Shown one piece after another: positions 26,681 through 41,546 of a stretch of 64,000 bases of DNA. Source of the DNA: Micromonospora echinospora (lineage in GTDB: Bacteria > Actinomycetota > Actinomycetes > Mycobacteriales > Micromonosporaceae). The position numbers and the translations under genes were made by a program. Below the pieces are notes generated by a model. That model saw only the letters and a list, made by a program, of their open reading frames with translations, was not told the origin of the DNA and made no database searches. The stretch spans positions 6,040,001-6,104,000 of the forward strand of contig NZ_JACHJC010000001.1 of the NCBI RefSeq assembly GCF_014203425.1, written 5' to 3'. Each line of letters starts with the position of its first letter. The first letter of the stretch is position 1.

Positions 26681-26697
26681 CTGGTTCTCCTTCATCC

Positions 26698-27075: not shown

Positions 27076-29532
27076 GCGCACGGCCGGCGTGGTGAGCGTG
27101 AACGCGTCCAGGTCGTAGAGCGCCCCGCTGCCCCCGGCGAACGTGAGGTAGAGCGTGGTGGTGCCGGCCGGCGGGCTGGTGATCGTGCCGGTCACTGTGG
27201 TGAACGTGTCCCAGGCGCCGGTGACCGGGACGGTGGCGGAGCCGAGGACGGCGCCGGTGGCCGAGCCGGCCCGCACCTGGAGCGTGCCGCCGGCTCCGGC
27301 GGACGAGACCCGGGCGGTGAATCCGGTGGCGTCGGCGAGCAGGTACGGCCGGAACGCGATCCAGTCCCCGTTGTGGATGTCGCCGACGGTCCTGCCGCCC
27401 TCGGCGGTGCCCTTGTCGAACGTGTTGACCCCGGCGGAGGTGGCGAAGTGCTCGGCCTGCCGGTGCCGGGGCTGGAGCGTGTGCTGGGTGTGCGTGGTGA
27501 GGCCGCCGGAGTCGGTGTACTCGGCGTCGAAGACCGCGAAGATGTTCGCCGCGTCGTCGTGCTCACCGTCGACCGGCACGGCGATCGAGCCGGTGCAGCC
27601 GGTCGCCGAGGTGATCTGGTGGCCGTGCTGGTCGTGGCCGAGCACGTAGGTCATCTTGACCTTCGTGCAGTCGATGGTGGCGTCCTCCGGGTCGGTGACG
27701 GTGATCCGGAACGGCACCGTGTCGCCGAAGGAGAACAGCTTGCCGTTGCCGGGCGTCTCGATGACCACAGTCGGGGCGGTGTTGCCGACTGTGACTGTCA
27801 CGCTCGCGGTGCCGGTGGCGCCCTGCGGGTCGCGCACGGTGAGCGTGGCGGTGTACCTGCCGTTCGCGGTGTAGGTGTGCGAGGGGTTCGCCGCGGTGGA
27901 GGTGCCGCCGTCGCCGAACGTCCAGGCGTACGTGAGCGCGCCGCCCTCCGGGTCGGACGAGCCGGTTGAGGAGAACGCGACTGCGAGCGGCGCGGCGCCG
28001 GATGTCCGGTCGGCGGCGGCACGGGCCACCGGGGCACGGTTGGCGCCGCCCAGGTAGTCGAAGCGGTACAGCGCCGAGTTGGCGTCGCCGTTGAAGTAGC
28101 CGGTGCCGTAGTCGAGCACGTAGTACGCGCCGTCCGGGCCGAACGCGGAGTCCATCACCTGTTTGCCGGCCCACGGGAACGTGTCGATGGTGCCGGGTGA
28201 GCCGTCGGCGTTGACGTGGATCGGCTTGATCCAGCCCCGGCCGAACTCGGTGGCGAAGAACTGCCCGTCGAAGGACTGCGGGAACTTCGTGGTGGACGGG
28301 TTCGCCGCGTCGTACCGGTAGACCGGGCCGCCCATCGGCGACTCGGAGCCGCCGCCGAACTCGGGCGGGCTGCCCGCGTCACCGGCGTAGCGGATCCAGG
28401 ACGGCTTCGCCGCCGGCAACGTGGCCAGGCCGGTGTTGCGGAACGAGTTGTTCGTCGGGCCGCCGGTGCAGTTGTACTTCGGCCCGGCGGTGCCGGTGGC
28501 GAAGTCCCATTCGGCGTACGTCTCGGCGGCCGTGTTGGTGCCGGTGCAGTACGGCCAGCCGTAGTTGCCGGGCCCGGTGACCCGGTTGAACTCGACCTGC
28601 CCGGACGGGCCGCGGGCCGTGGTGGTGCCGGCGTCCGGCCCGTAGTCGCCCACGTAGACGACGCCGGTGGCCTTGTCGACGCTGATCCGGAACGGGTTGC
28701 GGAAGCCCATCGCGTAGATCTCCGGGCGGGTCCGCGCGGTGCCGGGCGCGAAGAGGTTGCCGGCCGGGATCGAGTACGTGCCGTTGGCGTTCACCTTGAT
28801 CCGCAGGATCTTGCCGCGTAGGTCGTTGGTGTTGCCGGCGCTGCGCTGCGCGTCGTAGCCGGGGTTGCGGTTGGTGCGCTCGTCGATCGGCGCGTAGCCG
28901 GCCGAGTCGAACGGGTTGGTGTCGTCGCCGGTGGACAGGTAGAGGTTGCCGGCGGCGTCGAAGTCGATGTCGCCGCCGACGTGGCAGCACAGCCCCCGGT
29001 CGGCCGGTACGTCGAGCACGTCGACCTTGCTGGCCTGGTTGAGCGTGAAGTCGGCGTTGAGCGTGAACCGGGAGAGCCGGTTGACGCCCTGCCAGGCGGA
29101 GAAGTCGGTGCCGGTGGCGGGCGCGTCCCCGGCCGGGGTGGACAGCGGCGGCGCGTAGTAGAGGTAGATGTGCCGGTTGGAGGCGAAGCCGGGGTCGACG
29201 CCGACGCCCTGCAGCCCTTCCTCGTCGTGGGTGTAGACCGACAGCGTGCCGATGACTGTGGTGGCGCCGGCCGCGTCGGTGCGGCGCAGCGTGCCGTTGC
29301 GGGCGGTGTGCAGGACCGACCGGTCGGGCAGCACCGCCAGGGACATCGGTTCGCCGGTCTCGGCGACGCCGCGGGCGAGTTCGACCTGCTGGAAGTCGCT
29401 CGCCGTGATGGGGTGGGCGGACGCCGGGACGGGCGCCGCGGCCGCTGTGACGGTGCCGGCGGTGGCCGCGAGCAGCAGCGCTGCTGCGGCGGCGAACGGT
29501 CGTCGGGCACGGGGGTGGTGGTGGCTGGACAT
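26698..29532 (-). CDS. Secreted PQQ-type sugar dehydrogenase with PKD, CBM6 and ricin domains
   Basis: A 944-residue secreted protein. A signal peptide ends near PASAHPITAS. The six-bladed sugar-dehydrogenase propeller covers about residues 45-490 (EPMSLAVLPDRSVLHTARNG; YTHDEEGLQGVGVDPGF; HVGGDIDFDAAGNLYLSTGDD; AMGFRNPFRISVDKATGVVYVGDYGPD). A PKD domain (about 495-590, GGALTYAWTFGDGG), a domain with two possible metal histidines (VLGHDQHGHQ), a CBM6-like module and a C-terminal ricin lectin follow. Enzymes with this propeller oxidise sugars using PQQ or carry related catalysts. It is the first gene before the ThuA-DUF1080 gene, and its upstream region carries a motif shared with the ROK/ABC operon. 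Confidence 0.9.
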   Translation of the reverse strand: MSSHHHPRARRPFAAAAALLLAATAGTVTAAAAPVPASAHPITASDFQQVELARGVAETGEPMSLAVLPDRSVLHTARNGTLRRTDAAGATTVIGTLSVYTHDEEGLQGVGVDPGFASNRHIYLYYAPPLSTPAGDAPATGTDFSAWQGVNRLSRFTLNADFTLNQASKVDVLDVPADRGLCCHVGGDIDFDAAGNLYLSTGDDTNPFDSAGYAPIDERTNRNPGYDAQRSAGNTNDLRGKILRIKVNANGTYSIPAGNLFAPGTARTRPEIYAMGFRNPFRISVDKATGVVYVGDYGPDAGTTTARGPSGQVEFNRVTGPGNYGWPYCTGTNTAAETYAEWDFATGTAGPKYNCTGGPTNNSFRNTGLATLPAAKPSWIRYAGDAGSPPEFGGGSESPMGGPVYRYDAANPSTTKFPQSFDGQFFATEFGRGWIKPIHVNADGSPGTIDTFPWAGKQVMDSAFGPDGAYYVLDYGTGYFNGDANSALYRFDYLGGANRAPVARAAADRTSGAAPLAVAFSSTGSSDPEGGALTYAWTFGDGGTSTAANPSHTYTANGRYTATLTVRDPQGATGTASVTVTVGNTAPTVVIETPGNGKLFSFGDTVPFRITVTDPEDATIDCTKVKMTYVLGHDQHGHQITSATGCTGSIAVPVDGEHDDAANIFAVFDAEYTDSGGLTTHTQHTLQPRHRQAEHFATSAGVNTFDKGTAEGGRTVGDIHNGDWIAFRPYLLADATGFTARVSSAGAGGTLQVRAGSATGAVLGSATVPVTGAWDTFTTVTGTITSPPAGTTTLYLTFAGGSGALYDLDAFTLTTPAVRTGPVKGLAGKCLDVRNAATADGTQIQLYTCNGTTAQSWTVTPNATVKALGKCLDVSGGASADGTKIQLYTCNGTGAQNWSAQADGTLRNPSSAKCLDVSGNNSADGTAVHLWTCTGAANQRWTLP

Positions 29533-29752: not shown

Positions 29753-30820
29753 TCACTCGCGGCGGTCGACAGCCCGTTCCACAAGCGCGGCGAGCACCCG
29801 CCGGGCCGGCTCCGCGAGCCCCGCCGCGTCCAGCGCGACCACTGCCGCGTCGGCCCGGGTACGGATCATCCGCTCCACCGCCTCCCGGGCGCCGGACTCC
29901 TCGACGATGCCCCGCACCTCGGCGGCGCCCGCGTGGTCCAGTCCCGGATCGCCGACCAGCTCCCGCAGCCGGGCCACGCCGGCCGGGGAGGCGGACGCCC
30001 GGGCCAGCGCCAGCAGCACCGTCGGCTTGCCCTCGCGCAGGTCGTCCAGGTTGGACTTGCCGGTCACCGCCGGATCCCCGAAGACGCCGAGGACGTCGTC
30101 CCGGAGCTGGAACGCGTCCCCGAGCGGGTCGCCGAACCCGGCGAGCGCCGCCACCTCCTCCGGCGTCGCACCGGCCAGCGCGGCGCCGATCTGCACCGGA
30201 CGGGTCACCGTGTAACGGGCCGTCTTCAGCCGCACCACGGCGAGCGCGCTCGCCACCGTGCCGTCCCCGGCCGCGGCGACCACGTCCAGGTACTCCCCCG
30301 CGATCACCTCGGAGCGCATCCGGGCCAGCAGGACGTGCCCCCGGCGCAGCCGCTCCGGCGGCAACCCGCAGCCGTGGAACATCTGGGCCGACCAGGTGGC
30401 GCAGAGGTCCCCGCAGAGCACCGCCGCCTGCCGGCCGTACGCCGCCGGATCACCGCGCCAGCCGGACCGCTCGTGCAGGTCGGCGAAGAAGCGGTGCAGC
30501 GTCGGCGCGCCCCGGCGGCGGTCACTGCGGTCCACGATGTCGTCGTGGATCAGCGCGAACGCGTGGAACAACTCCAGCGACGCCGCGGCCACCAGAATCG
30601 GCCGCTCGTCCGGGCCGCCGAAACCCCGCCAGCCCCAGTAGCAGAACAGCGGTCGCAGCCGCTTGCCACCGGCCAGCACGAACCGGCGCAGAGCGGTGTG
30701 GACGGCCCCCGTACCGTCGTCCGGCCGACCCGGCCGTCTCGCGTCCAGGAACGCGGCGAGCTCGGCGTCGAAGCGGCCCCGAAGCAGGGCCGGGTCGGTC
30801 GGTGCGACGGTTACGGTCAT
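29753..30820 (-). CDS. Polyprenyl diphosphate synthase (GGPP-synthase-like)
   Basis: A 355-residue isoprenyl chain elongase. The first aspartate motif is LIHDDIVDRSDRRRG and the second is FQLRDDVLGVFGDP. The substrate lysine/arginine cluster GGKRLRPLF lies near residue 52, and KSNLDDLREGKPTVLLALA follows. It condenses isopentenyl units into a C15-C25 allylic diphosphate; the exact length depends on residues before the first DDxxD that cannot be judged by eye. It is the last gene of the Ebo-type operon, ATGA-coupled to the phosphatase-like gene. It would supply the prenyl donor to the UbiA transferase at 35823-36731. Confidence 0.9.
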   Translation of the reverse strand: MTVTVAPTDPALLRGRFDAELAAFLDARRPGRPDDGTGAVHTALRRFVLAGGKRLRPLFCYWGWRGFGGPDERPILVAAASLELFHAFALIHDDIVDRSDRRRGAPTLHRFFADLHERSGWRGDPAAYGRQAAVLCGDLCATWSAQMFHGCGLPPERLRRGHVLLARMRSEVIAGEYLDVVAAAGDGTVASALAVVRLKTARYTVTRPVQIGAALAGATPEEVAALAGFGDPLGDAFQLRDDVLGVFGDPAVTGKSNLDDLREGKPTVLLALARASASPAGVARLRELVGDPGLDHAGAAEVRGIVEESGAREAVERMIRTRADAAVVALDAAGLAEPARRVLAALVERAVDRRE

Positions 30821-32211
30821 GGCGCCTCCCAGGCCAGTCCGGCGAGTTCGAGCAACAACGCCTTCACATCGGTCGCCTCCACCCGGGGCCGGATCGCGGC
30901 CCGGTCGGAGCAGAGCAGCACCGGGCCGTCTGCCGGATCGGCCGGCAGGCGCCCGTGCGAACCACGCACCGCCCGCGCCCCGGCGTCCAGCCCGACCACG
31001 TTCATCAGATAGCGCAGGCCGAGCTTCTTGCGGGCCAGCGCCACCGCCGCGCGGCGTTTCGCCGCGCCCGGAGCGGCCGGGTCGAAGAACAGCTCGGCCG
31101 GGTCGTAACCCGGCTTGCGATGGATCTCCACCAGCCGGGCGAAGTCGGGCGCCCGCGCGTCGTCGAGCCAGTAGTAGTAGGTGAACCAGGCGTCCGGCTC
31201 GGCCACCAGGATCAGCTCGCCCGAGCGGGGATGGTCGAGGCCGTACCCGGCCTGCCCGGCGGCATCAAGCACCTCGGCCACGCCGGGCAGCGCCGCGCAG
31301 AGCTTCGCCACCGCCGGCACGTCCGCCGGATCCCGGACGTAGACGTGCGCCACCTGGTGGTCGGCCACCGCGAACGCCCGTGACGTCCACGGGTCGAGGT
31401 ACTCCATCCCGGCCTGGGTGTAGACCCGCAGGAACCCTTCGGCGCGCAGCAACCGGTTCACGTCCACCGGGCGGGACACGTCGGTGATGCCGTACTCGGA
31501 CAACGCCACAACAGTAGCGTCCCGATCACGGGCGGCATCCAGCAGCGGGCCGAGCACGGTGTCCAACTCCGCCGCCGCGGCGGCGGCCTCCGGCCCGGAC
31601 GGACCGAAGCGTTGCAGGTCGTAGTCCAGATGCGGCAGGTACACCAGCGTCAGGTCGGGGGCGTGGTCGGCGAGGATGCGCTGCGCCGCCCGGCTGATCC
31701 ACGCCGAGGACGGCAGCCCGGCGCCCGGCCCCCAGTAGCTGAACAGCGGGAACGTGCCGAGCGCCTCGGTCAGCGTGTCCCGCAGCTGCGGCGGGTCGGT
31801 CCAGCAGTCCGGCTCCTTGCGCCCGTCGGCGTGGTAGACCGGGCGCGGCGTGACGGTCCAGTCCACGTCCGCGCCCATCGCGTACCACCAGCAGACGTTG
31901 GCGACCCGGTAGCCCGGCTCGGCCCGGCGGGCCGCCTGCCACACCTTCTCGCCGCCGACCAGCGCGTTGTGCTGCCGCCAGAGCAGCACCTCGCCCAGGT
32001 CGCGGAAGTACCAGCCGTTGCCCACCACGCCGTGCCCGGCGGGCAGCTCGCCGGTGAGGAACGTGGACTGCGCCGAGCAGGTCACCGCCGGCAGCACCGT
32101 GCCCAGCTCGGCGGCGAACCCGGCCTCGGCCACCGCGCGCAGCCGGGGCATGTGCGCCAGCAACCGCGGGGTCAGCCCGACCACGTCGAGCACCACCAGC
32201 CGCCGGCTCAT
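30817..32211 (-). CDS. eboF: EboF-like alkaline phosphatase/phosphodiesterase superfamily protein
   Basis: A 464-residue member of the type I phosphodiesterase / nucleotide pyrophosphatase fold. Metal-site segments are VVLDVVGLTPRLL at the start (where most relatives have D-G), the nucleophile region LPAVTCSAQSTFLTGELPAGHGVVGNGWYF, LVYLPHLDYDLQRFGP, VVALSEYGITDV and ADHQVAHVYV. The Thr in AVTCSAQ is the likely nucleophile. No signal peptide is present, so it probably acts inside the cell on a phosphorylated intermediate. It is coupled to genes on both sides. The Ebo assignment rests on gene order. Confidence 0.8.
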   Translation of the reverse strand: MSRRLVVLDVVGLTPRLLAHMPRLRAVAEAGFAAELGTVLPAVTCSAQSTFLTGELPAGHGVVGNGWYFRDLGEVLLWRQHNALVGGEKVWQAARRAEPGYRVANVCWWYAMGADVDWTVTPRPVYHADGRKEPDCWTDPPQLRDTLTEALGTFPLFSYWGPGAGLPSSAWISRAAQRILADHAPDLTLVYLPHLDYDLQRFGPSGPEAAAAAAELDTVLGPLLDAARDRDATVVALSEYGITDVSRPVDVNRLLRAEGFLRVYTQAGMEYLDPWTSRAFAVADHQVAHVYVRDPADVPAVAKLCAALPGVAEVLDAAGQAGYGLDHPRSGELILVAEPDAWFTYYYWLDDARAPDFARLVEIHRKPGYDPAELFFDPAAPGAAKRRAAVALARKKLGLRYLMNVVGLDAGARAVRGSHGRLPADPADGPVLLCSDRAAIRPRVEATDVKALLLELAGLAWEAP

Positions 32212-33458
32212 GCGGTGCCGGCCTTCGTTCGCGACTGCGGGGCTCGCAGGACCGGCTCACTCCTCGCGCTCACGGCGACCCCCGCCGTCGGGGCCAGCCC
32301 GAGCGCGGTCAGCTCGTCGCGGGCGAAGGCCACCTCGGCGGCGATGCCGGCGGCCAGCTCCGCGTCGCCGCGCGGCCGCCGCGCCTCCGGCAGCACCCCC
32401 CAGGTGTACGTCTCGACGTCGAGGTGGTCGCAGCCGGCGGCCGGACCGGCGAACAACGCGGCCAGCGCCTCCCGCAGGACCGGCACCGTGGAGCGCAGCG
32501 GCGGCTCGGGCGGGGCGTGCAGCGGCACGTGGTAGTGCACCCGCCACGCCCCGGGCAGCCGGGCGTCGAGCGCGGCGTCGAGGTCGTCGGCCGCGTACGC
32601 CGGATCGGCCGGGTCGGCGGCGCCCGCGCAACCGGCCGCGCGGGTCTGGTGCAGGAACCTCGGCTCGACGAAGCGGCGCAGCGCCGCGCCCGCCGTCACC
32701 GGATCGGGCGCCTCGACCGCGGCGGACACCTGGACCTTCACCACCGGCAGCCCGGCGGCACGCAGCCCGGCCAGGGCATCCGCCGGCTGCTCCCAGGCGC
32801 ACGCCAGGTGTGCGAGGTCCAGGCAGATCCCGAGCCGGTCGGTATCCATGGCTGAGAATACCTCGCGTGCTTGTCCCGTCGACTCCACCAGGCAGCCGGG
32901 TTCCGGCTCGAAGCCGACCCGGATCACCCGGCCGGTCTCCCGCTGCACCGCGGCCAGCCCGTCGGCCAGCGCGTCGAGCCGCCGCCGGGCGGTCGCGGTC
33001 CGCGCGGCGTCCCACGGCGTACGCCAGGCCAGCGGCAGCGTCGAGACCGACCCGTGGACGGCGTCGTCGGGCAGCAGGTCGGCCAGCACCCGGGCCAGGT
33101 CGAGCGTGTACGCCGATCGCTGCGGCGTGGTCCAGTCCGGGTGGTACACCGCGCCCTTGACCACCGGGGCCTGGAACGCGGCGTACGGGAAACCGTTGAG
33201 CGTGACCACCTCCAGCCCGCGCACCGTCAGCTCGTGGCGCAGCCGGCGGCGGGCCGCCGGGTCGGCGGCGAGCGCGGCGGCCACCGGCGCGGCCAGCCAG
33301 AGCCCGAGCCCGAGCAGGTCGGCGTCGAGCGCCCGGCGCACCGCGACCGCGTACGTGTCGAGCTGGGCGACGATGCCGGGCAGGTCCTCGGCCGGGTGGA
33401 CGTTCGTGCAGTAGCCGAGATGGACAGTGGTGCCGTCGGCGTGACGCAGCCGCATCAT
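32208..33458 (-). CDS. eboE: EboE-like TIM-barrel protein
   Basis: A 416-residue barrel protein. The opening LGYCTNVHPAEDLPGIVAQLDTYAV is the strongest family mark of EboE. Further strands are LEVVTLNGFPYAAF, RVGFEPEPGCLVESTGQAREVF, GICLDLAHLACAWEQPADAL, VVKVQVSAAVEAPDP and DHLDVETYTWGVLPEARRP, supplying Glu, Asp, His and Glu for a metal site as in xylose-isomerase-like enzymes. The start is ATGATG at 33458/33455; the first ATG gives the four-base overlap with the TatD-like gene seen throughout this operon. Chemistry unknown; action on a cyclitol or sugar is likely. Confidence 0.8.
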   Translation of the reverse strand: MMRLRHADGTTVHLGYCTNVHPAEDLPGIVAQLDTYAVAVRRALDADLLGLGLWLAAPVAAALAADPAARRRLRHELTVRGLEVVTLNGFPYAAFQAPVVKGAVYHPDWTTPQRSAYTLDLARVLADLLPDDAVHGSVSTLPLAWRTPWDAARTATARRRLDALADGLAAVQRETGRVIRVGFEPEPGCLVESTGQAREVFSAMDTDRLGICLDLAHLACAWEQPADALAGLRAAGLPVVKVQVSAAVEAPDPVTAGAALRRFVEPRFLHQTRAAGCAGAADPADPAYAADDLDAALDARLPGAWRVHYHVPLHAPPEPPLRSTVPVLREALAALFAGPAAGCDHLDVETYTWGVLPEARRPRGDAELAAGIAAEVAFARDELTALGLAPTAGVAVSARSEPVLRAPQSRTKAGTA

Positions 33459-34306
33459 TCGCCTCCGCGCACTATCGAGTTGCCGGCGAAGGTGGGCGCC
33501 GCGGCCTCCAGGGCGGTCAGGTCGAGCCGGCCGGACTGGCCGTAGAACTCGACCGGGTTGCGCCACAGCACTCGGTCCACGTCGTCGGCGCTGAACCCGG
33601 CCAGCTGCATCGCCTCCCCGGTGGCCCGGGTCAGCAGCGGGTCCGACCGCCCCCAGTCGGCGGCCGAGTTGACGAGCATCCGCTCGGTCCCGTACCGCTT
33701 CAGCAGCTCGACCATGCGCGGCGGCGACATCTTCGTCTCCGGGTAGATGGAGAAGCCCAGCCAGCAGCCGGTGTCCCGGACCAGCTCCACTGTCACCTCG
33801 TTGAGGTGGTCGACGAGCACCCGTTCCGGCGCGATGTCCGACTCGGCGACCACGTCGAGCGTGCGCCGTACGCCGCGTGCCTTGTCCCGGTGCGGCGTGT
33901 GCACCAGGGCGGGCAGGTCGTACGCGACGGCCAGCGCGAGCTGCCCGGCCAGCGCGGCGTCCTCGGCCGGCGTCATCGCGTCGTAGCCGATCTCGCCGAC
34001 CGCCACCACGCCGTCCTTGTCCAGGTAGCGGGGCAGCAGGTCGAGCACCGGGCGGCAGCGCGGGTCGTTCGCCTCCTTCGGGTTCAGCGCCACTGTGGCG
34101 TGGTGCCGGACGCCGAACTGCCCGGCCCGGAACGGCTCCCAGCCGATCAGCGAGTCGAAGTAGTCCACGAAGCTGTCCACGCTCGTACGCGGCTGGCCCA
34201 GCCAGAACGCCGGCTCGACCACCGCGCGGACCCCGGCGGCGGCCATCCGCTCGTAGTCGTCCGTGGTACGGGACGTCATGTGGATGTGCGGGTCGAAGAT
34301 GCGCAT
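33455..34306 (-). CDS. eboB: EboB-like TatD-family metal hydrolase
   Basis: A 283-residue amidohydrolase-fold protein. Metal ligands are visible as FDPHIHM (HxH) at the N-terminus, Glu in GVVAVGEIGYDAMTP, His in LPALVHTPHRDK, His in VLVDHLNEVTVE and Asp in LVNSAADWGRSDP, the TatD arrangement. The substrate in Ebo clusters is unknown. It is one base from the end of eboA and overlaps the eboE start. TatD relatives are otherwise metal-dependent hydrolases, so a hydrolytic step in making or trafficking the Ebo metabolite is plausible. Confidence 0.85.
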   Translation of the reverse strand: MRIFDPHIHMTSRTTDDYERMAAAGVRAVVEPAFWLGQPRTSVDSFVDYFDSLIGWEPFRAGQFGVRHHATVALNPKEANDPRCRPVLDLLPRYLDKDGVVAVGEIGYDAMTPAEDAALAGQLALAVAYDLPALVHTPHRDKARGVRRTLDVVAESDIAPERVLVDHLNEVTVELVRDTGCWLGFSIYPETKMSPPRMVELLKRYGTERMLVNSAADWGRSDPLLTRATGEAMQLAGFSADDVDRVLWRNPVEFYGQSGRLDLTALEAAAPTFAGNSIVRGGE

Positions 34307-34307
34307 G

Positions 34308-34913
34308 TCACGCCTCCGTGGTGGGGATGGTCAGCCGGCGCAGCAGGTCGGCTGCGTCGTCGGGCATGGTCCGGCCGGCGGCGTGCCGCTCGGCGGCGAA
34401 TGCGGCGAGCATCCGCGCCAGCTCGCCGTCGGCGCGGTCGGCCAGGCCGTCGACCACCGCCAGTGGCACGCCGGTGAACACGCACTTGAGCACCGCCTGC
34501 CGCCAGGCCGGCTGCTCCAGGTGCCGGGCGTACGGGCCGAGCGCGGCGGCGACCAGCCGGGTGTCGTTGGTACGGATCGCGTCGTGCAGCAGCGGCACGC
34601 ACTCCGCCCCGATGGGCAGCAGCGGCAGCGCGCGCAGCACGGCGCGTTTCTCGGCGGCGTCGCCCTGCCGGTAGAGCGTCTCAGCGGCGGAGGCGTGACC
34701 GCCGGGCAGCGCGGTCAGCAGCAGCGCCCGCGCCGCCTCGTCGGCCGTCCAGCCGGGCGGGTCGGGCAGCGGCCCGCGACCGCACCGCCGGGCGGTCGCG
34801 GCGAAGAACCGTTCGATCGCCGCGGGTTCGGTCGCGACGCGGCGCAACGCCGCATCCAGCCACTGCGGATCGGGTACGCCCCGAAGCGCGGCGCGCAGTC
34901 GGTCGGGTGTCAT
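34308..34913 (-). CDS. eboA: EboA-family protein
   Basis: A 201-residue all-helical protein from ATG 34913. The pattern LDAALRRVATEPAAIERFFAATARRCGRGPL, DEAARALLLTALPGG, AETLYRQGDAAEKRAVLRALPLLPIG, VPLLHDAIRTNDTRLVAAALGPYARHLEQPAWRQAVLKCVFTGVPL matches the EboA family, which has no known activity. The helix pairs look HEAT-like. A frame extending further upstream would run into the TIM-barrel gene and lacks a ribosome site. Its neighbours on both sides are Ebo genes, which supports the name. Confidence 0.8.
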   Translation of the reverse strand: MTPDRLRAALRGVPDPQWLDAALRRVATEPAAIERFFAATARRCGRGPLPDPPGWTADEAARALLLTALPGGHASAAETLYRQGDAAEKRAVLRALPLLPIGAECVPLLHDAIRTNDTRLVAAALGPYARHLEQPAWRQAVLKCVFTGVPLAVVDGLADRADGELARMLAAFAAERHAAGRTMPDDAADLLRRLTIPTTEA

Positions 34914-34947
34914 GCCGTCTCCCCTCTGCCGGGTGGAAGGTGGTGGA

Positions 34948-35826
34948 TCACCGCCCCTCGCCGCGCGAGGCGGCGGCGCGCAGGAAGTCCAGTGAGCGGG
35001 CGGCGACGGCCGGAGCCGCGTGCGAGTGCCGGGGCAGCTCCACCGCCACCAGCCCGCGGTAGCCGGCGTCGGCCAGGGCGCGCAGCACCGGCGGGAAGTC
35101 GATCTCACCGGCGCCGAACTCCAGGTGCTCGTGCACACCCCGGCGCATGTCGTCGATCTGCACGTTGACCAGATGCGCGGCGACCGCGGCCACGCACCGC
35201 GGCACCGCCAGCGGCTCCAGGCAGCGGCAGTGTCCGATGTCGAGCGTGATGCCGAAGCCGGGCGGCGCGCCGAGCGCCTCGCGCAGCCGCCACCACCCGG
35301 CGATGTCCTCGACGAACATGCCCGGCTCCGGCTCGAAGCCCAGCGCCACGCCCTCGTCGGCGGCCTCGGCGCAGACGGTCGCGCAGCCGGCCACCAGGCG
35401 GTCGGCCGCGACGTCGGGCGGTACGCCGGGCGGGCGTACGCCGGCCCAGAAGGAGACCGCCTCCGCGCCCAGCTCGGCGCCGATCCGCACGGCCCGGCGC
35501 AGGAACTCCACCCGCCGGGCCGGGTCGTCGTGCAGCAGCGTCGGCGCGTGCTTGTGCCAGGGGTCGAGCAGGTAGCGGGCGCCGGTCTCGACCACCACCG
35601 CCAGCCCGAGCGCGTCCAGCCGGCGGCGTACGGCGGCCACCCGGCGGATCAGCCCGGGGGCGAACGGGTCCAGGTGGTCGTGGTCGAGGGTGAGCGCGAC
35701 GCCCGCGTACCCGAGGTCGGCGAGGACCGCCAGCGCGTCGCCGAGGCGGTGGTTGGCGAAGCCGTTGGTGCCGTACCCGAAACGCAGCGCGCCCGGGCCG
35801 GGCAGCGGGTCGGGGACAGCGGTCAT
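34948..35826 (-). CDS. Second TIM-barrel isomerase of the Ebo-type operon
   Basis: A 292-residue sugar phosphate isomerase/epimerase-like barrel, ATGA-coupled to the UbiA gene. Strands and candidate metal residues are RFGYGTNGFANHRLGDALAVLADLGYAGVALTL, AVSFWAGVRPPG, ALGFEPEPGMFVEDI, GITLDIGHCRCLEP, VNVQIDDMRRGVHEHLEFGAGEIDF and LVAVELPRHSH. The FEPEPG segment also occurs in the EboE protein (FEPEPGCLVES), so the two barrels are probably distant paralogues. This gene is not among the six standard ebo genes I know, and marks a variant cluster. Confidence 0.8.
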   Translation of the reverse strand: MTAVPDPLPGPGALRFGYGTNGFANHRLGDALAVLADLGYAGVALTLDHDHLDPFAPGLIRRVAAVRRRLDALGLAVVVETGARYLLDPWHKHAPTLLHDDPARRVEFLRRAVRIGAELGAEAVSFWAGVRPPGVPPDVAADRLVAGCATVCAEAADEGVALGFEPEPGMFVEDIAGWWRLREALGAPPGFGITLDIGHCRCLEPLAVPRCVAAVAAHLVNVQIDDMRRGVHEHLEFGAGEIDFPPVLRALADAGYRGLVAVELPRHSHAAPAVAARSLDFLRAAASRGEGR

Positions 35827-36731
35827 GTCGGCGAGATCAGCCGGGCCAGGCGGCGGCCGAGCGGGGCGGCCCCGGCCACGGCGAGGCCGAGCAGCCGGGC
35901 CCCGGCGCGGGCGGTGAGCGCGCCCTGCAAGGCGGGCAGCCCGGTGATCCCGGCCCCGACGGCGGCGCGCACCCGGGCCGGTGACGGGTCGGCGAGCACC
36001 CGGACCTGCGCCCGGCCGTACCGGGCGGCGTACCCGGCCGCGAGCACCGCCGGCACGAGGTGACCGAGCCCGGCGGTGCGGCCGGAGCCGCTGCGGGCCG
36101 GGGAGCCGGGGCGCGCGGCGGGTGGCGTGGGCCGGGCCGGGGTGGCGAGCGCGACGAGCGCGGTGCCGGCCAGCGTGAGGCCGGGTAGCCGCCGGTCCGC
36201 GCCGGTCACCTCGCGCCGGGACAGCGCGGTCACGGTCCAGGTGTGCGCGGCCACAGTCAGCGCGGCCGGCAGCGCCCGGACCACCCGGCCGCCGGACGCG
36301 CCGAGCAGCACGTCCAGCCCTCGGCAGGCGGCCATCACCGCCGGGCCGGCGGCGGTGTTCTTGGCGCGCAGGTCGTACCCCCAGATCGTGGCGGCGAGCG
36401 GGAGCGCGACCGCTGCCGCCCGGCGGCCCCCGGCGGCGGTGGCGACCGCGAGCCCGGCGGCGGTCAGGCCGGACGCGACGCCGAGCGCCACCGACGGGCG
36501 CACCCGGCCGGACGGGATCGGCCGCTCCGGCCGTTCGACAGCGTCCAGCCGCCGGTCCGCCCAGTCGTTGGCGGCCATCCCGGCCCAGTAGAGCAGCACC
36601 GACGCGCCGGCCAGCGCGGGCGTCCGGCGGCCCAGCGCACCGGCCGCGGCGGCGCCGGAGAGCACGTCCCCGGGCACCGAGAGCGCGGCCGGCGCCCGGA
36701 CCAGCTCGGCCAGGTCGGCCAGGCGGGTCAC
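35823..36731 (-). CDS. eboC: EboC-like UbiA-family prenyltransferase
   Basis: A 302-residue membrane enzyme from GTG 36731, overlapping the end of the inositol-phosphate synthase gene. The first aspartate motif is YWAGMAANDWADRRLDAVERPERPIPSGRV (NDxxD plus the RP-P segment). The second loop is IWGYDLRAKNTAAGP. Eight or more hydrophobic helices fill the rest. UbiA enzymes move a prenyl group from diphosphate to an aromatic or hydroxylated acceptor; here the acceptor could be the cyclitol made by the preceding enzyme. The polyprenyl donor is provided by the last gene of the operon. Confidence 0.85.
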   Translation of the reverse strand: MTRLADLAELVRAPAALSVPGDVLSGAAAAGALGRRTPALAGASVLLYWAGMAANDWADRRLDAVERPERPIPSGRVRPSVALGVASGLTAAGLAVATAAGGRRAAAVALPLAATIWGYDLRAKNTAAGPAVMAACRGLDVLLGASGGRVVRALPAALTVAAHTWTVTALSRREVTGADRRLPGLTLAGTALVALATPARPTPPAARPGSPARSGSGRTAGLGHLVPAVLAAGYAARYGRAQVRVLADPSPARVRAAVGAGITGLPALQGALTARAGARLLGLAVAGAAPLGRRLARLISPT

Positions 36732-37876
36732 GGCGACATCCGGGCGTGCAGGCCGGCGGTGAAGTCCCGCAGCACCGCCCACTGCCCGCCGAGCGCGTGG
36801 CCGGTCGCGCCGAGCGGGTCCTTGAAGAAGAACGCCAGCTCGGTCAGCGGGCCGTGGCGGCCGGCGGCGTGCGCGGCGGCGGTGAGCCGGGACAGGTCCA
36901 GCACGAGCGGCGCGGCGAGCGCCGAGTCGCAGCCGTGCCAGGTGAACTCCATCCGCATGCCGGTGCCCAGGAAACCGGCGAACGTGACCAGGTCCCAGGC
37001 GGTCTTGAAGTCGCCCAGTTCCTCGACGTACTCGATCCGGGTACCACCCTGCGGCAGGTAGCCGAGCGTCTCGGCGAGCACCCGCTGCTTGCTGCCCACC
37101 TTCGCGGCGTTGGCGGCCGGGTCGGCGAGCGTGGCGCCGTCGCCGCCGCCGAGCAGGTTCGTGCCGGACCAGGAGCGCACGGCGAGGTGCCGCATCGCGA
37201 ACATCGGCGCGAGCACCGACTTGAGCAGCGTCTCGCCGGTCTTGCCGTCGTGCCCGGCGTACGGCAGTCCGCGTTCGGCGGCCAGCGCGGCCAGGGCCGG
37301 CAGCCGGGCACCTGTGGACGGGGTGAAGTCCACGTACGGGCAGCCGGCGGTGAACGCCGCGTACGCGTACGCGGAGCTGGGCGGCAGCACGTCGGGCGCA
37401 CTGGTCAGCGCCTCGCGCAGCGTGGCCAGGTCGTGGTGGGCCGGGTGCGGGGCGGGCGCCGGTTCGGTGGCGGCGACGTTGACCACCACCACCCGGTCCA
37501 GCCCGTGCCGGGACCGGAAGTCGGTCAGGTCGCGGACCACAGTGGCGATCCGCTCGCCCTGGTCGCCCTCGACCGGCGCGGGCCGTAGCGCCGCCTCGAC
37601 GGCGGCCAGGTCGGGTGCCACGGCGTCGGCCAGCCGGCCGGGCAGCACCCCGGCGTCGGCGAGCGCCTCGGCGCGTTTGGTGAGCGGGGTGGCGACCACG
37701 TCGTGGCCGCCGAAGACGAGATCGGCGAAGCCCGGCAGGGCGGGCCCGCGCAGGGCGGGCAGCTCGGTCACGCATCCGGTCGGCGCGGTGAGCCCGGCCC
37801 GCAGGGCCAGCCCGCCGACCACGGCGGTGGTGGCGACCGAGCCGCGCGCACCCACCAGCCACACACCCGTACGCAT
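36728..37876 (-). CDS. Inositol-3-phosphate synthase-like enzyme
   Basis: A 382-residue enzyme from ATG 37876 (ribosome site GGGGAGG). The NAD site is GVWLVGARGSVATTAVVGGLAL. Active-site segments are YAGHDGKTGETLLKSVLAPMF (with the conserved lysines), WSGTNLLGGGDGATLADPAANAAKVGSKQ and MRMEFTWHGCDSALAAPLVLDL. The reaction would turn glucose 6-phosphate into an inositol phosphate. It is the first gene of the Ebo-type operon and occupies the place of eboD, a sugar-phosphate cyclase, in other clusters: both make a cyclitol with bound NAD. It may be dedicated to this pathway rather than to phosphatidylinositol or mycothiol. Confidence 0.85.
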   Translation of the reverse strand: MRTGVWLVGARGSVATTAVVGGLALRAGLTAPTGCVTELPALRGPALPGFADLVFGGHDVVATPLTKRAEALADAGVLPGRLADAVAPDLAAVEAALRPAPVEGDQGERIATVVRDLTDFRSRHGLDRVVVVNVAATEPAPAPHPAHHDLATLREALTSAPDVLPPSSAYAYAAFTAGCPYVDFTPSTGARLPALAALAAERGLPYAGHDGKTGETLLKSVLAPMFAMRHLAVRSWSGTNLLGGGDGATLADPAANAAKVGSKQRVLAETLGYLPQGGTRIEYVEELGDFKTAWDLVTFAGFLGTGMRMEFTWHGCDSALAAPLVLDLSRLTAAAHAAGRHGPLTELAFFFKDPLGATGHALGGQWAVLRDFTAGLHARMSP

Positions 37877-38085: not shown

Positions 38086-39291
38086 TCAGGCGGAAGCTTC
38101 GGCCAGAGCGGGTTCCACCTCCGTCCAGGCGGCCCGCTCGGCCGAGCGGGTCACCGCGTCGAGCACGAGCTGGACCTGAAGCGCGTCGGCGAACGACGGG
38201 GCCGGGTCGGCGCCGGTGGCGACCGCCTCGACGAAGTCACGCGCCTGGTGGGTGAAGGAGTGCTCGTAGCCGATGATGTGGCCGGGCGGCCACCACGCGC
38301 CCAGGTACGGGTGCTCCGGCTCGGTCACCAGGATCCGGCTGAAGCCCTGCTCGGCGGCGGGCCGGGTGGCGTCCAGGAACTCCAGCTCGTTGAGGCGTTC
38401 CAGGTCGAACACGACGCTGCCGCGCGAACCGTTGATCTCGACCCGAAGCGCGTTCTTACGGCCGGTGGCGAACCGGGTCGCCTCGTACGTGGCCAGCGCT
38501 CCCCCGTCGAGCCGGGCCACGAACACCGCCGCGTCGTCCACTGTCACCTGGCCCGTCGCGCTGCCGTTGCCGTCGGCCTGCGCGGCCAGGCCGCTCGACC
38601 CGGCGACGAGTGGCCGCTGGCGGACGAACGTCTCGGTCAGCGCGCTGACCCCGGTGATGAGCTGACCGGTGACGTACTGGGTCAGGTCGATGATGTGCGC
38701 GCCGATGTCGCCGAGCGCGCCGGAGCCCGCCCTGTCCTTCTGCAACCGCCACACCAGCGGGAACTGCGGGTCGACGATCCAGTCCTGGAGGTAGACCGCC
38801 CGGACGTGCCGGATCTCGCCGATCCGCCCGTCCGCCACCAGCTGCCGCATCAGGGCGACCGCCGGCACCCGCCGGTAGTTGAAGCCGCACATCGCGCGTA
38901 CCCCGGACGCCTGGGCACGGGCCGCGGCCTCGGTCATCTCCCGGGCCTCGGCGACGCTGTTCGCCAGCGGCTTCTCGCACAGCACGTGCTTGCCCGCGGC
39001 GAGCGCGGCGAGCGCTATCTCGCGGTGGCTGTCCCCCGGCGTGCAGATGTCGACCACGTCGATCTCGTCGGACTCGACGAGCCGCCGCCAGTCGGTGGTG
39101 TAGCCGTCCCAGCCGAGCCGGTCGGCGGCCTCGGCCACCTTCGGTTCGTCCCGGCCGCAGACGAGCGCCATCCGCACCCGGGCCGGCAGGTCGAACACCC
39201 GGTTCACGGTGCGCCACGCCTGGGAGTGCGCGGCGCCCATGAACGCGTAGCCGACCATGCCGACCCGCAGGATGCTGTCGTGACTGGACAA
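38086..39291 (-). CDS. Gfo/Idh/MocA-family oxidoreductase
   Basis: A 401-residue NAD(P)-dependent dehydrogenase. The dinucleotide fold begins RVGMVGYAFMGAAHSQAWRTV, the catalytic EKP-type motif is HVLCEKPLANSVAEAREMTEAA, and the C-terminal sheet carries the substrate-side histidine (HIIDLTQYVTGQLI, GDIGAH). The preferred start is TTG at 39291, with GGGGGAG about eight bases before it; the frame is open further up, but that part lies inside the binding-protein gene. Members oxidise or reduce sugars, inositols and glycoside 3-OH groups. It is the last gene of the ABC operon, 20 bases after the binding protein, so it likely acts on the imported sugar. Confidence 0.88.
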   Translation of the reverse strand: MSSHDSILRVGMVGYAFMGAAHSQAWRTVNRVFDLPARVRMALVCGRDEPKVAEAADRLGWDGYTTDWRRLVESDEIDVVDICTPGDSHREIALAALAAGKHVLCEKPLANSVAEAREMTEAAARAQASGVRAMCGFNYRRVPAVALMRQLVADGRIGEIRHVRAVYLQDWIVDPQFPLVWRLQKDRAGSGALGDIGAHIIDLTQYVTGQLITGVSALTETFVRQRPLVAGSSGLAAQADGNGSATGQVTVDDAAVFVARLDGGALATYEATRFATGRKNALRVEINGSRGSVVFDLERLNELEFLDATRPAAEQGFSRILVTEPEHPYLGAWWPPGHIIGYEHSFTHQARDFVEAVATGADPAPSFADALQVQLVLDAVTRSAERAAWTEVEPALAEASA

Positions 39292-39311: not shown

Positions 39312-40364
39312 TCAGAACCCGAGCTTCAGGTAGTCGCTCGCGTTCTCCTTGGTGATCGTCTCGGAGGCGAGGACGATCTCCTTCGGTACCTGGAGTTCGA
39401 CCAGGTCGGACATGCCCTTGCCCTGGCCGATCAGGCGGGCCAGGGAGATGGCCGAGGAGGCCATCGACGGGCTGTAGGTGACTGTGGCCTTGAGGACCGT
39501 GTTGTCGGCGGCGATGTCCTCCATGGCCTTCTTGGAGCCGGCGCCGCCGACCATGATGAATTCCTTGCGGTTGGCCTGGTTGACCGCCGCGAGCACGCCG
39601 ATGCCCTGGTCGTCGTCGTGGTTCCAGACCGCGTCGATCTTCGGCAGCGCCTGGAACAGGCCGGTGGCGGCCTGCTGGCCGGAGTCCACGGTGAACTCCG
39701 CCGGACGCCGGTTGGCGACCTTGAACCCGTACGAGGCGAGCGTGTCGGCGAACCCCTTCGACCGTTCCTGGGTCAGCTCCAGCGACTCGATGCCGGGGAT
39801 CTCGCCGATCACCGGGTTGCTCACGCCTTTGGCCTTGAGCTGCTCGGCGATGTAGGTGGCGGCGGCCACCCCCATGCCGTAGTTGTCGCCCTTGATCTGG
39901 CACCGGTAGGCGCGCGCGTCCGGGAAGGCCCGGTCCAGGTTCACCACGGGTATGCCGGCCTTCATCGCCTCCAGGCCGAACGCGTTGAGCTCCTTGCCGT
40001 CGTGCGGCAGCAGCACGATCACGTCGGGCTTCTGCGAGATCAGCGTGGACAGCGCCGCCCGCTGGGCCGCCGCGTCCGCGCCGGCCTCGACCGACTTCAG
40101 CTCCACGTCCTGGTACGCCCCGGCCTGCGCCTTGGCGTTGTTGGTGATGGCGGCGATCCAGCCGTGGTCGGCGGCCGGGGCGGAGAATCCGATGCTCACC
40201 TTCTTGCCCGGCTCGGTGTTGGCGCCGGAACCGGCCGCCTTGGTCTGTGCCTCGGTCGGGTTCTGCTCGTTGCTTGTGCAGCCGGCGAGCAGCACCCCGG
40301 CGGAGACGGCGGCCCCGCCGAAGAGCAGCCGGCGGCGGGACAGGTCATGGCGCGGTGTTCTCAT
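39312..40364 (-). CDS. Sugar-binding lipoprotein of an ABC importer
   Basis: A 350-residue periplasmic-binding protein of the ribose/xylose (type I fold) family. The start HDLSRRRLLFGGAAVSAGVLLAGCTS carries both a twin-arginine-like motif and a lipobox, so it may be a Tat-exported lipoprotein. Fold marks are VSIGFSAPAADHGWIAAITNNAKAQA, VIVLLPHDGKELNAFGLEAMKAGIPVVNLDRAF, and DAVWNHDDDQGIGVLAAVNQANRKEFIMVGG. The ligand is unknown. It follows the permease gene by 93 bases, a gap larger than the other overlaps and perhaps containing its own ribosome site or processing point. Confidence 0.88.
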   Translation of the reverse strand: MRTPRHDLSRRRLLFGGAAVSAGVLLAGCTSNEQNPTEAQTKAAGSGANTEPGKKVSIGFSAPAADHGWIAAITNNAKAQAGAYQDVELKSVEAGADAAAQRAALSTLISQKPDVIVLLPHDGKELNAFGLEAMKAGIPVVNLDRAFPDARAYRCQIKGDNYGMGVAAATYIAEQLKAKGVSNPVIGEIPGIESLELTQERSKGFADTLASYGFKVANRRPAEFTVDSGQQAATGLFQALPKIDAVWNHDDDQGIGVLAAVNQANRKEFIMVGGAGSKKAMEDIAADNTVLKATVTYSPSMASSAISLARLIGQGKGMSDLVELQVPKEIVLASETITKENASDYLKLGF

Positions 40365-40457
40365 GACGCCTCCTGGGATGAGGTGGTGGGGTGGTTTCGG
40401 GTGTGGCGGGCCGGACCACAGTCGGTACGACGGCAGCCGGGGTGTGCGCGGGTGGGG

Positions 40458-41546
40458 TCAGGTGGTGGTGGCCCGGTTGCGGGCGAGGAACTGGGTGAGA
40501 CTGCCGAACTGCACCTGCTGGACCAGGACGGCGGCGACGATGATGCCGCCCTTGACCATGTTCTGGGCCTCGGCGGAGAGGTTGTTGATGGCGAACAGGT
40601 TGGTGATCGTAGAGAAGATGATCACCCCGAGCAGGGAGCCGATGATCGTGCCCCGCCCGCCGCTGAGCAGCGTGCCGCCGATGATCGCGGCGGCGATCGC
40701 GTCCAGCTCGTAGAGGTTGGCCATCGCCGCCTGCGCGGAGGTGGCCTGCGCGGTCAGCATGACCGCGGCGATGCCGCAGCACAGGCCGGAGAGCGCGTAG
40801 AGGAGCACTGTGTGCCGGCGGACGTTGATGCCGGCCAGCCGGGCCGCCTCCGGGTTACCGCCGACCGCCACCGTACGGCGGCCGAACGTGGTCCGGTTCA
40901 ACAGCACCCAGCCGGCCGCCACCACCGCGACCAGGATGTAGACCAGCAGCGGGATGCCGAGCACGTTCGTGCTGGCGATGCCGTTGATGAACGTGTTGCC
41001 CGACACCTGGGTCTGCTTGTCGGAGATCTCCGCCGCCAGCCCTCGGGCGGCGACGAGCATGGCCAGCGTGGCGATGAACGGCACCAGCCGCCCGTACGAG
41101 ACGAGCAGCCCGTTGACCACGCCGACGGCGAGCCCGACGGTCAGCGCGGTGAAGATCATGCCGCCCGCGCCGTAGCTCTGCGTGGCCACTGTGGTGCACC
41201 AGACCCCGGCCAGCGCGACGATCGCGCCCACCGACAGGTCGATGCCGCCGCCGATGATCACGAAGGTCATGCCGACGGTGACCACGCCGACCACCGAGGC
41301 GAGTTTGAGGATGGTGAGCGTGTTGCCCCACACCCAGTTCGGGTCACCGTAGAGGTCGGGGCGGGTCAGGATGCCGATGACCACGAGCACCACCAGCACG
41401 GCGAGCAGGCCCAGGTTGCGCTTCGCGCCCTCCCCGCCGTCGCCGCGCCACCAGGAGAGCTTCGCCGGCGCGTCGACCTTGGCGGTCTCCGCTCGCTCCA
41501 CCGGCGGCGACTGCGCGGGCAGCGAGGTGTCAGTGGCTTCGCTCAT
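40458..41546 (-). CDS. Sugar ABC importer permease (RbsC-like)
   Basis: A 362-residue membrane subunit. A 45-residue cytoplasmic leader precedes about eight to ten helices (from NLGLLAVLVVLVVIGILTRP to GGIIVAAVLVQQVQFG). The family motifs are GMTFVIIGGGIDLSVGAIVALAG and the EAA-like loop NPEAARLAGINVRRHTVLLYALSG, with AIIGGTLLSGGRGTIIGSLLG following. It is coupled by an ATGA overlap to the ATPase and would form a homodimeric channel. RbsC/XylH-type permeases carry pentoses, hexoses or polyols. Confidence 0.9.
   Translation of the reverse strand: MSEATDTSLPAQSPPVERAETAKVDAPAKLSWWRGDGGEGAKRNLGLLAVLVVLVVIGILTRPDLYGDPNWVWGNTLTILKLASVVGVVTVGMTFVIIGGGIDLSVGAIVALAGVWCTTVATQSYGAGGMIFTALTVGLAVGVVNGLLVSYGRLVPFIATLAMLVAARGLAAEISDKQTQVSGNTFINGIASTNVLGIPLLVYILVAVVAAGWVLLNRTTFGRRTVAVGGNPEAARLAGINVRRHTVLLYALSGLCCGIAAVMLTAQATSAQAAMANLYELDAIAAAIIGGTLLSGGRGTIIGSLLGVIIFSTITNLFAINNLSAEAQNMVKGGIIVAAVLVQQVQFGSLTQFLARNRATTT

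What the first reader, a model, noticed from the sequence alone, without database searches (positions are those of the whole stretch)
29753..37876. Eight-gene Ebo-type operon with an inositol-phosphate synthase in place of EboD
EboA, B, C, E and F homologues, a GGPP-synthase-like gene and an extra TIM barrel are translationally coupled behind an inositol-3-phosphate synthase. Ebo clusters are linked in cyanobacteria to metabolite export, but their product is unknown. A cyclitol maker, a prenyl-chain maker, a UbiA transferase and a phosphatase together predict a prenylated cyclitol. The swap of cyclase would explain what EboD supplies.
Basis: partly seen in the sequence, partly recalled or inferred. 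Interest (0 to 1): 0.75.

Follow-up and report, generated by a model that had tools for sequence, protein, structure and literature searches.

The report
Ebo operon with swapped cyclitol-making enzyme
A soil bacterium carries a version of a widespread but unexplained gene cluster in which the usual ring-forming sugar enzyme is replaced by an inositol-phosphate synthase plus a helper enzyme, a swap that recurs in unrelated microbes and so points to what the cluster builds.

Summary
The operon is real. Eight genes on the minus strand (37876-29753) of a Micromonospora-like genome encode MIPS, a UbiA prenyltransferase of the NCBI 'SCO3242' family, a xylose-isomerase-like TIM barrel, EboA, EboB, EboE, EboF and a polyprenyl synthase; five of seven junctions overlap by 4 nt. 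In 123 EboE-anchored loci, MIPS lies near 32, EboD near 71, neither near 20, both near none. The genome has five MIPS-family genes; two pass the mycothiol cut-off, this one does not. MIPS comes with the TIM barrel (one exception, L036). The pair also occurs in Gemmatimonadota, where an EboD cluster shares its prenyltransferase lineage with the MIPS clusters, and beside a reduced Ebo set in three haloarchaea. So MIPS+TIM, not MIPS alone, stands in for EboD. The polyprenyl synthase is not core. The prenyl-cyclitol idea was published in 2016. New here, as far as searched: the recurrent swap, its reach into archaea, and a strong link of MIPS-type clusters to sugar-oxidation genes (GSDH, ThuA, 3-keto-disaccharide hydrolase). 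Best reading: a prenylated inositol-type membrane lipid. The product is inferred, not shown.

The parts
36728..37876 (-). myo-inositol-phosphate synthase (MIPS), 382 aa; stands in a cluster that lacks EboD
   Evidence: PF07994/PF01658; 236 bits to A. fulgidus mIPS 1u1i; K259, K263, K291, K352 match its four catalytic Lys (roles recalled) and are kept in at least 96% of 34 cluster MIPS rows; not mycothiol INO1
35823..36731 (-). UbiA-superfamily prenyltransferase, SCO3242 family (EboC counterpart), GTG start, 302 aa
   Evidence: NF045897 377.5 bits, cut-off 260; NF035940 EboC 117, cut-off 250; N55, D56, D59, D63, Y119 and K124 kept in at least 96% of 93 rows
34948..35826 (-). xylose-isomerase-like TIM barrel that travels with MIPS, 292 aa
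   Evidence: PF01261 133 bits; near 29 of 30 MIPS-type and 0 of 71 EboD-type EboE loci; 48% identical to the Gemmatirosa gene
34308..34913 (-). EboA-domain protein, 201 aa, predicted all-helical solenoid
   Evidence: NF035938 167 bits, cut-off 50; AlphaFold2 mean pLDDT 96
33455..34306 (-). EboB, TatD-like metallohydrolase, 283 aa
   Evidence: PF01026; H7, H9, E105, H136, H139, H167, D217 kept in at least 96% of 102 rows
32208..33458 (-). EboE, xylose-isomerase-like TIM barrel, 416 aa
   Evidence: NF035939 405.8 bits, cut-off 250
30817..32211 (-). EboF, type I phosphodiesterase/phosphatase family, 464 aa
   Evidence: PF01663 214.5 bits
29753..30820 (-). trans-polyprenyl diphosphate synthase, 355 aa; operon member in Micromonospora, not a core ebo gene
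   Evidence: PF00348 161 bits; no NCBIfam cut-off passed; attached in L044 and L045, in the stretch of L025 and L051 only
26698..29532 (-). GSDH beta-propeller with PKD, CBM6 and ricin-lectin domains, with a signal-peptide-like N-terminus (read by eye); recurrent neighbour of MIPS-type clusters
   Evidence: PF07995 etc.; GSDH within 11 kb of EboE in 18 of 27 Actinomycetota loci, 0.45 expected
24575..26698 (-). ThuA + 3-keto-disaccharide hydrolase + CBM6 + ricin lectin (start not fixed)
   Evidence: ThuA in 17 of 37 MIPS-type and 0 of 70 EboD-type loci
23393..24556 (-). AP_endonuc_2 TIM barrel, weakly IolE-like (start not fixed)
   Evidence: PF01261, TIGR04379 41.7 bits, cut-off 290; relatives beside the Gemmatimonadota clusters L009 (440 bits) and L166 (472 bits)
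38086..39201 (-). Gfo/Idh/MocA sugar/cyclitol dehydrogenase (start approximate)
   Evidence: levoglucosan dehydrogenase model 355 bits, cut-off 650; iolG 123 bits, cut-off 355
39312..43132 (-). sugar-type ABC importer: binding protein, permease, ATPase

Best explanation
This is an Ebo-type biosynthetic operon of a second chemical type. MIPS cyclises glucose 6-phosphate to inositol phosphate (inferred from family and intact active site). The co-travelling TIM barrel then changes that cyclitol (inferred), and together the two fill the slot that EboD fills elsewhere (comparative evidence). The UbiA enzyme attaches a polyprenyl chain, in Micromonospora probably made by the adjacent synthase (inferred), giving a prenylated cyclitol lipid. 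EboB, EboE and EboF (hydrolase, isomerase/dehydratase, phosphatase or phosphodiesterase) finish or trim the head group, and EboA, a predicted helical solenoid, may scaffold them at the membrane (inferred). The lipid serves steps outside the cytoplasm (inferred); here its recurrent partner is a sugar-oxidising set (GSDH, ThuA, 3-keto-disaccharide hydrolase) with secretion-type signals read by eye.
For: Exclusivity: 32 MIPS, 71 EboD, 20 neither, 0 both among 123 EboE loci. Recurrence: on a tree of EboB+E+F the MIPS state needs two changes, Actinomycetota and Gemmatirosa, and Gemmatirosa groups with EboD types. In Gemmatimonadota the UbiA of the EboD cluster L054 nests among UbiAs of MIPS clusters, with EboF 76% and EboE 62% identical between L054 and L009. 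In four MIPS-type Gemmatimonadota genomes (G467, G476, G701, G760; completeness not told) the best EboD-like hits are 35-38% identical, 109-138 bits, the level also seen in actinobacterial genomes without EboD. A haloarchaeal version pairs MIPS with UbiA, EboB, EboF and two TIM barrels in three genera, with no EboD, EboA or full EboE hit. Active-site residues are intact. No mycothiol role. The window's genome has only AroB-level EboD-like scores (122 and 144 bits; intact EboD genes about 490-680). Linked enzymes: GSDH near 18 of 27 loci against 0.45 expected; ThuA 17/37 and 3KDH 14/37 in MIPS types, 0/70 in EboD types.
Against: No product, substrate or activity is known for any MIPS-type cluster. 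MIPS product keeps its phosphate while sugar phosphate cyclases lose theirs (family knowledge), so the two cannot feed an identical next step without EboF or another phosphatase. UbiA enzymes usually C-prenylate aromatics, and EboC homologues farnesylated 8-hydroxyquinoline-2-carboxylic acid in vitro (PMC9235831, parts 1-2 of 4 read). MAG G396 holds both cyclases on separate contigs. Two Actinomycetota loci have neither cyclase (L026, and the broken L052). MIPS of the three groups lie on separate branches among non-ebo MIPS, so transfer of MIPS as part of a module is not shown. No MIPS case appeared among the 80 best all-phyla loci, so outside Actinomycetota the type looks rare. The 37 MIPS-type loci are not independent (17 of 28 Actinomycetota loci are one family).
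Confidence: 0.5

Rival explanations
1. The MIPS-type cluster makes something chemically different from EboD-type clusters; it only shares the EboA/B/E/F toolkit, and the inositol phosphate enters a phospholipid-like product rather than replacing a C7 cyclitol.
For: MIPS and EboD use different folds and substrates and keep or lose phosphate (family knowledge); the UbiA of the window fails the EboC model; the neighbourhoods differ, ThuA/3KDH 17 and 14 of 37 versus 0 of 70.
Against: UbiA, EboE and EboF of the Gemmatimonadota EboD cluster are close to those of MIPS clusters, which suggests that the downstream enzymes accept either supply.
Confidence: 0.22
2. The pathway aromatises an inositol- or valiolone-type ring through TIM-barrel isomerase/dehydratases and prenylates it to a new quinone-like redox lipid that serves the secreted dehydrogenases.
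For: UbiA chemistry and the in vitro aromatic prenylation by Ubi-297 (PMC9235831); weak IolE similarity of a haloarchaeal cluster TIM (50 bits) and of the neighbour at 23393-24556 (42 bits), though the window's own core TIM matches hydroxypyruvate isomerase best (41 bits); GSDH linkage; no PqqE over cut-off in this genome, so the GSDH may not rely on self-made PQQ.
Against: No oxidoreductase (other than the cyclase), methyltransferase or oxygenase in the core operon; missing PqqE does not prove that PQQ is not taken up; GSDH-family proteins need not use PQQ.
Confidence: 0.12
3. Ebo proteins form a metabolite-export machine; the cyclase is needed for a carrier or signal, and the cluster type follows the exported compound.
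For: [quoted passage not shown] three Streptomyces plasmid copies lie beside secondary-metabolite-type genes, and SCO3242/SCO3243 are listed with the CDA cluster in PMC3610822 (passages).
Against: No transporter in the core set; this window and 20 of 37 other MIPS-type loci have a GSDH sugar-dehydrogenase neighbour.
Confidence: 0.14

Closest known systems
ebo cluster, eboABCDEF (Yurchenko 2016, PMC5133447)
   Same: EboA, EboB, UbiA, EboE, EboF genes side by side; predicted isoprenoid-cyclitol product
   Different: no EboD in cluster or genome; MIPS and an extra TIM barrel instead; UbiA outside the EboC model; polyprenyl synthase attached
SCO3242 family prenyltransferase region of Streptomyces coelicolor (NCBIfam NF045897; SCO3243 is listed as myo-inositol phosphate synthase in PMC3610822)
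   Same: same prenyltransferase family; the same cluster type was read in three Streptomyces plasmid records
   Different: no relative of the adjacent prenyl synthase was found in the Streptomyces loci fetched; the S. coelicolor locus itself was not fetched; not described as an ebo variant in the papers found
scytonemin-linked ebo genes of Nostoc (PMC6282210)
   Same: ebo genes tied to extracytoplasmic oxidation; a ScyD/ScyE-family gene also stands upstream of MIPS in S. camelliae, with distant relatives near the ebo loci L100 and L107 of cyanobacteria
   Different: EboD type; indole-alkaloid context
Archaeoglobus-type MIPS (1u1i)
   Same: family and four catalytic lysines
   Different: no ebo link known to me

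Membership tests
canonical ebo cluster | EboA present | tested here: met
   NF035938 167 bits, cut-off 50; the stricter subfamily NF035937 is not reached (82.5 of 320)
canonical ebo cluster | EboB (TatD-like) present | tested here: met
   PF01026 39 bits; aligns with EboB of both types
canonical ebo cluster | EboC equivalog | tested here: not met
   NF035940 117.4 of 250; SCO3242 family 377.5 of 260
canonical ebo cluster | EboD present | tested here: not met
   absent from the operon; best genome hit 144 bits with an EboD profile
canonical ebo cluster | EboE equivalog | tested here: met
   NF035939 405.8 of 250
canonical ebo cluster | EboF, PF01663 lineage | tested here: met
   PF01663 214.5 bits; aligned with EboF of both types, 104 rows
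myo-inositol-phosphate synthase | both Pfam domains and the four catalytic lysines | tested here: met
myo-inositol-phosphate synthase | makes inositol 3-phosphate | not testable with these tools
   MIPS relatives with other products exist (6k96, five-membered-cyclitol-phosphate synthase, 42 bits)
mycothiol INO1 | TIGR03450 cut-off | tested here: not met
   20.4 of 638; two other genes pass
GGPP synthase | chain-length-specific model | tested here: inconclusive
   NF041003 115 of 500, mycobacterial farnesyl/geranyl model 302 of 600

The most novel reading that the evidence does not exclude
Ebo-type clusters supply a prenylated cyclitol lipid that extracytoplasmic oxidation systems built on secreted beta-propeller proteins depend on: GSDH with ThuA and 3-keto-disaccharide hydrolase for the MIPS type in actinobacteria, Gemmatimonadota and haloarchaea, and ScyD/ScyE-type proteins in scytonemin makers. 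The cyclase (EboD, or MIPS plus TIM barrel) sets the head group, and so the partner system.
Probability: 0.2. Interest if true: 0.85.

Novelty: new variant of a known kind. Interest (0 to 1): 0.62.

Why it matters
The product of ebo clusters has been unknown since they were named. A natural replacement of EboD by an enzyme family with a well-studied reaction turns 'what does EboD supply' into a defined test: compare the lipids of MIPS-type and EboD-type clusters and feed labelled inositol. The swap recurring in Actinomycetota and Gemmatimonadota, with a MIPS-containing relative in haloarchaea, makes it a pattern rather than a curiosity, and the tie to sugar-oxidation enzymes gives a physiological lead outside scytonemin.

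Tried and rejected

Rows dropped: tree used 83 of 92 loci with all three proteins (nine near-duplicates left out); UbiA tree used 85 rows after the same list was left out and fragments of 200 aa or less were dropped; MIPS tree left out eight near-identical Streptomyces rows; TIM tree left out the same rows and the split L142 gene. The context count used 37 MIPS-type loci (window not counted) and 70 EboD-type loci (L054 left out). The GSDH chance count left out the window's own genome and G244. Of 48 plasmid records with an EboE match, 12 loci were typed.
Full report
Observation. The window lies in a 7.13 Mb single-contig genome. The nearest named relatives of its MIPS are Micromonospora chalcea and M. 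tulbaghiae (93-96% identity, names given by sources). The operon runs on the minus strand from 37876 to 29753. Start codons and gaps were read from the sequence: MIPS 37876-36728, UbiA 36731-35823 (GTG), TIM barrel 35826-34948, EboA 34913-34308, EboB 34306-33455, EboE 33458-32208, EboF 32211-30817, polyprenyl synthase 30820-29753. Five of seven junctions overlap by 4 nt. Pfam and NCBIfam support the assignments, with two corrections: the UbiA gene belongs to NCBI's SCO3242 family and not to its EboC model, and the prenyl synthase passes no chain-length model.

Is the MIPS a housekeeping gene? No. The genome has five genes over the PF01658 cut-off. Two pass the mycothiol INO1 cut-off, at 566972 and 252516 of the contig; the operon MIPS scores 19.8 there. 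The closest solved relative is the A. fulgidus enzyme, 236 bits over 370 residues. Its catalytic lysines K274, K278, K306 and K367 (roles recalled; positions from the printed alignment) match K259, K263, K291 and K352 here, each kept in at least 96% of 34 MIPS rows from clusters. The genome has two DHQ-synthase-family genes over cut-off, which score 122 and 144 bits with an EboD profile on which intact EboD genes reach about 490-680 bits. So no EboD was found in the genome.

Survey. Three sets of EboE-anchored loci were typed with profiles built here. Of 12 loci from plasmid records, 5 have MIPS and 7 EboD. Of 28 loci from 26 other Actinomycetota genomes (EboE in 27 of 396 searched, the window's own included), 25 have MIPS, 1 has EboD (L033) and 2 have neither; 24 of the 28 hold all seven core genes. 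A Gemmatimonadota search (EboE in 5 of 395 genomes) adds three distinct loci: two MIPS (L142, L145) and one EboE with neither (L143); its other two are Gemmatirosa and L054 again. In all: 123 loci, 32 MIPS, 71 EboD, 20 neither, 0 both. The window itself is a further MIPS case.

What travels with MIPS. The TIM barrel is near 29 of 30 MIPS-type EboE loci and 0 of 71 EboD-type ones; L145 has it too, and L142 has it in two pieces. The exception (L036), and the one Actinomycetota locus that has TIM but no MIPS (L026), are second copies in genomes (G383, G123) that also hold a complete cluster. L052 is broken. So the unit that stands in for EboD is MIPS plus TIM.

How often did the swap happen? On the EboB+EboE+EboF tree (83 loci) the MIPS/EboD state needs two changes: the Actinomycetota clade (29 MIPS rows and L026, support 100) and Gemmatirosa, which groups with EboD-type clusters of Deinococcus (L011), L033, L117 and L129. 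EboB of Gemmatirosa is 71% identical to that of the EboD-type L033 but 44% to the window's. Inside Gemmatimonadota the UbiA of the EboD-type cluster L054 falls among the UbiAs of MIPS clusters (sister to L166 at 89/86; the six-row clade 100/100), with EboF 76% and EboE 62% identical between L054 and L009. Thus closely related downstream enzymes are found with either cyclase. A genome-wide check found no EboD-level hit in G467, G476, G701 and G760, and found that MAG G396 carries, besides its EboD cluster, a TIM-MIPS pair with the end of another UbiA on a separate contig. Those are two clusters, not one: the two UbiA fragments are only 53% identical where they overlap. Because G396 is a MAG, mixing of genomes cannot be excluded. 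In G701 the MIPS cluster (L166: TIM, MIPS, UbiA, EboF, EboB) is apart from its EboE (L143).

Archaea. Plasmids of Halobaculum salinum, Natronococcus sp. CG52 and Halocatena salina carry TatD-like EboB, two TIM barrels, UbiA, MIPS and an EboF-type gene in one neighbourhood. Profiles give MIPS 450-458, EboB 325-341, EboF 342-365, UbiA 159-171 and TIM 158-183 bits, no EboA or EboD hit, and EboE only as a weak cross-match to the TIM barrels (33-41 bits). A Halomarina MIPS of the same branch sits among glycosyltransferases instead. The MIPS tree keeps the three groups apart, with non-ebo MIPS beside the haloarchaeal and (weakly, 84/83) the Gemmatimonadota ones, so MIPS may have been recruited more than once. 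The TIM barrels of all three groups lie on one side of a branch (100/100) from the other TIM paralogues used; the haloarchaeal ones are 29-37% identical to the window's, the Gemmatimonadota ones 46-48%.

Neighbourhood. Beside the operon lies a GSDH beta-propeller with PKD, CBM6 and ricin domains and a signal-peptide-like start (26698-29532; the signal was judged by eye), then a ThuA + 3-keto-disaccharide hydrolase protein with the same binding domains (24575-26698) and a weakly IolE-like TIM barrel (23393-24556). On the other side are a levoglucosan-dehydrogenase-like Gfo/Idh/MocA gene, a sugar-type ABC importer and a ROK regulator. The genome has three GSDH genes in all. GSDH lies within 11 kb of EboE in 18 of 27 Actinomycetota loci, with 0.45 expected from GSDH numbers and genome sizes. 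These are not independent: 12 of the 18 come from one family (f5), the others from three (f1, f18, f33). Among 37 MIPS-type loci ThuA is near 17, 3-keto-disaccharide hydrolase near 14, GSDH near 20; among 70 EboD-type loci the counts are 0, 0 and 9, the last at 36-73 bits to this query (a laxer search gave 12 of 71). The locus lengths are similar (medians 19.9 and 21.2 kb). Both low-scoring GSDH genes from EboD loci that were tested are true PF07995 members (L060, L080), so GSDH linkage is not confined to the MIPS type. In Gemmatimonadota a single protein next to TIM-MIPS carries 3-keto-disaccharide hydrolase, ThuA and GSDH together (L165); Natronococcus has a GSDH-cupredoxin protein close by and Halocatena a ThuA gene. 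S. camelliae has a ScyD/ScyE-family gene directly upstream of MIPS, with distant relatives (51-54 bits) near the cyanobacterial ebo loci L100 and L107. Three Streptomyces plasmid copies lie beside secondary-metabolite-type genes, and PMC3610822 (passages read) lists SCO3242 and SCO3243 among CDA cluster genes.

How it most likely works. Shown: gene order, family membership, intact catalytic residues, exclusivity with EboD per cluster, co-travel with the TIM barrel, recurrence. Inferred: MIPS makes inositol phosphate; the TIM barrel isomerises, epimerises or dehydrates it; UbiA joins a prenyl chain; EboF removes a phosphate or splits a phosphodiester; the product is a membrane lipid acting outside the cytoplasm. 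Chain length is open. The synthase has DDIVD as its first Asp-rich motif with Phe five residues before it, a pattern I recall from archaeal-type GGPP synthases; no call tested this.

Relation to print. PMC5133447 (passages, section 12 part 1 of 2, and section 16 read) named ebo, proposed an isoprenoid-cyclitol, and noted that actinobacterial EboA can be fused to a xylose-isomerase-like domain; 'inositol' does not occur in its main text. PMC6282210 (passages and sections 7 and 8 read) showed that ebo mutants of Nostoc fail to move the scytonemin monomer to the periplasm and suggested a cyclitol lipid carrier; 'inositol' does not occur there either. PMC9235831 (parts 1-2 of 4 read) showed in vitro farnesylation of 8-HQA by EboC homologues. 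PMC9655573 (one passage) reports indole products from E. coli bearing the EDB cluster of P. fluorescens NZI7, which PMC6282210 says contains a full ebo cluster. The exchange described here was not found in the searches listed under Tried and rejected.

Verdict. A real, well-bounded variant of a known cluster type.

Noticed in passing
L018, G000:C1:4760600-4772000: A second close MIPS paralogue of the same genome (399 bits to the operon MIPS) lies in a different gene set with a phosphopantetheine-binding protein, condensation domain, PLP decarboxylase, two acyl-CoA dehydrogenase-like proteins, AMP ligase and inositol monophosphatase family protein: an orphan cyclitol natural-product cluster by the look of it.
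   Followed up: partly
G000:C1:4473584-4474504: A divergent fifth MIPS-family gene (161 bits to mycothiol INO1, cut-off 638) of unknown role.
   Followed up: no
G000:C1:252516 and 566972: Two genes pass the mycothiol INO1 cut-off in one genome.
   Followed up: no
L147/L154, L148/L155, L157: Haloarchaeal plasmids carry a reduced MIPS-type Ebo set without EboA, EboD and full EboE, with two TIM barrels.
   Followed up: partly
L006:8689-9891: ScyD/ScyE-family gene directly upstream of MIPS in Streptomyces camelliae.
   Followed up: partly
L165:1838-4885: One Gemmatimonadota protein holds 3-keto-disaccharide hydrolase, ThuA and GSDH domains next to TIM-MIPS.
   Followed up: partly
L076, L082, L088, L090, L092, L093, L113, L124 and others: EboE homologues with no other ebo gene detected nearby, including Terrabacter (L092) and a Nanopelagicales MAG (L093); some lie on short contigs.
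   Followed up: no
L052 (G244): A decayed cluster: UbiA and EboE are in pieces and no MIPS or TIM was found.
   Followed up: no
G000, whole genome: No PqqE over cut-off (best 50 of 381 bits) although three GSDH-family genes are present.
   Followed up: no
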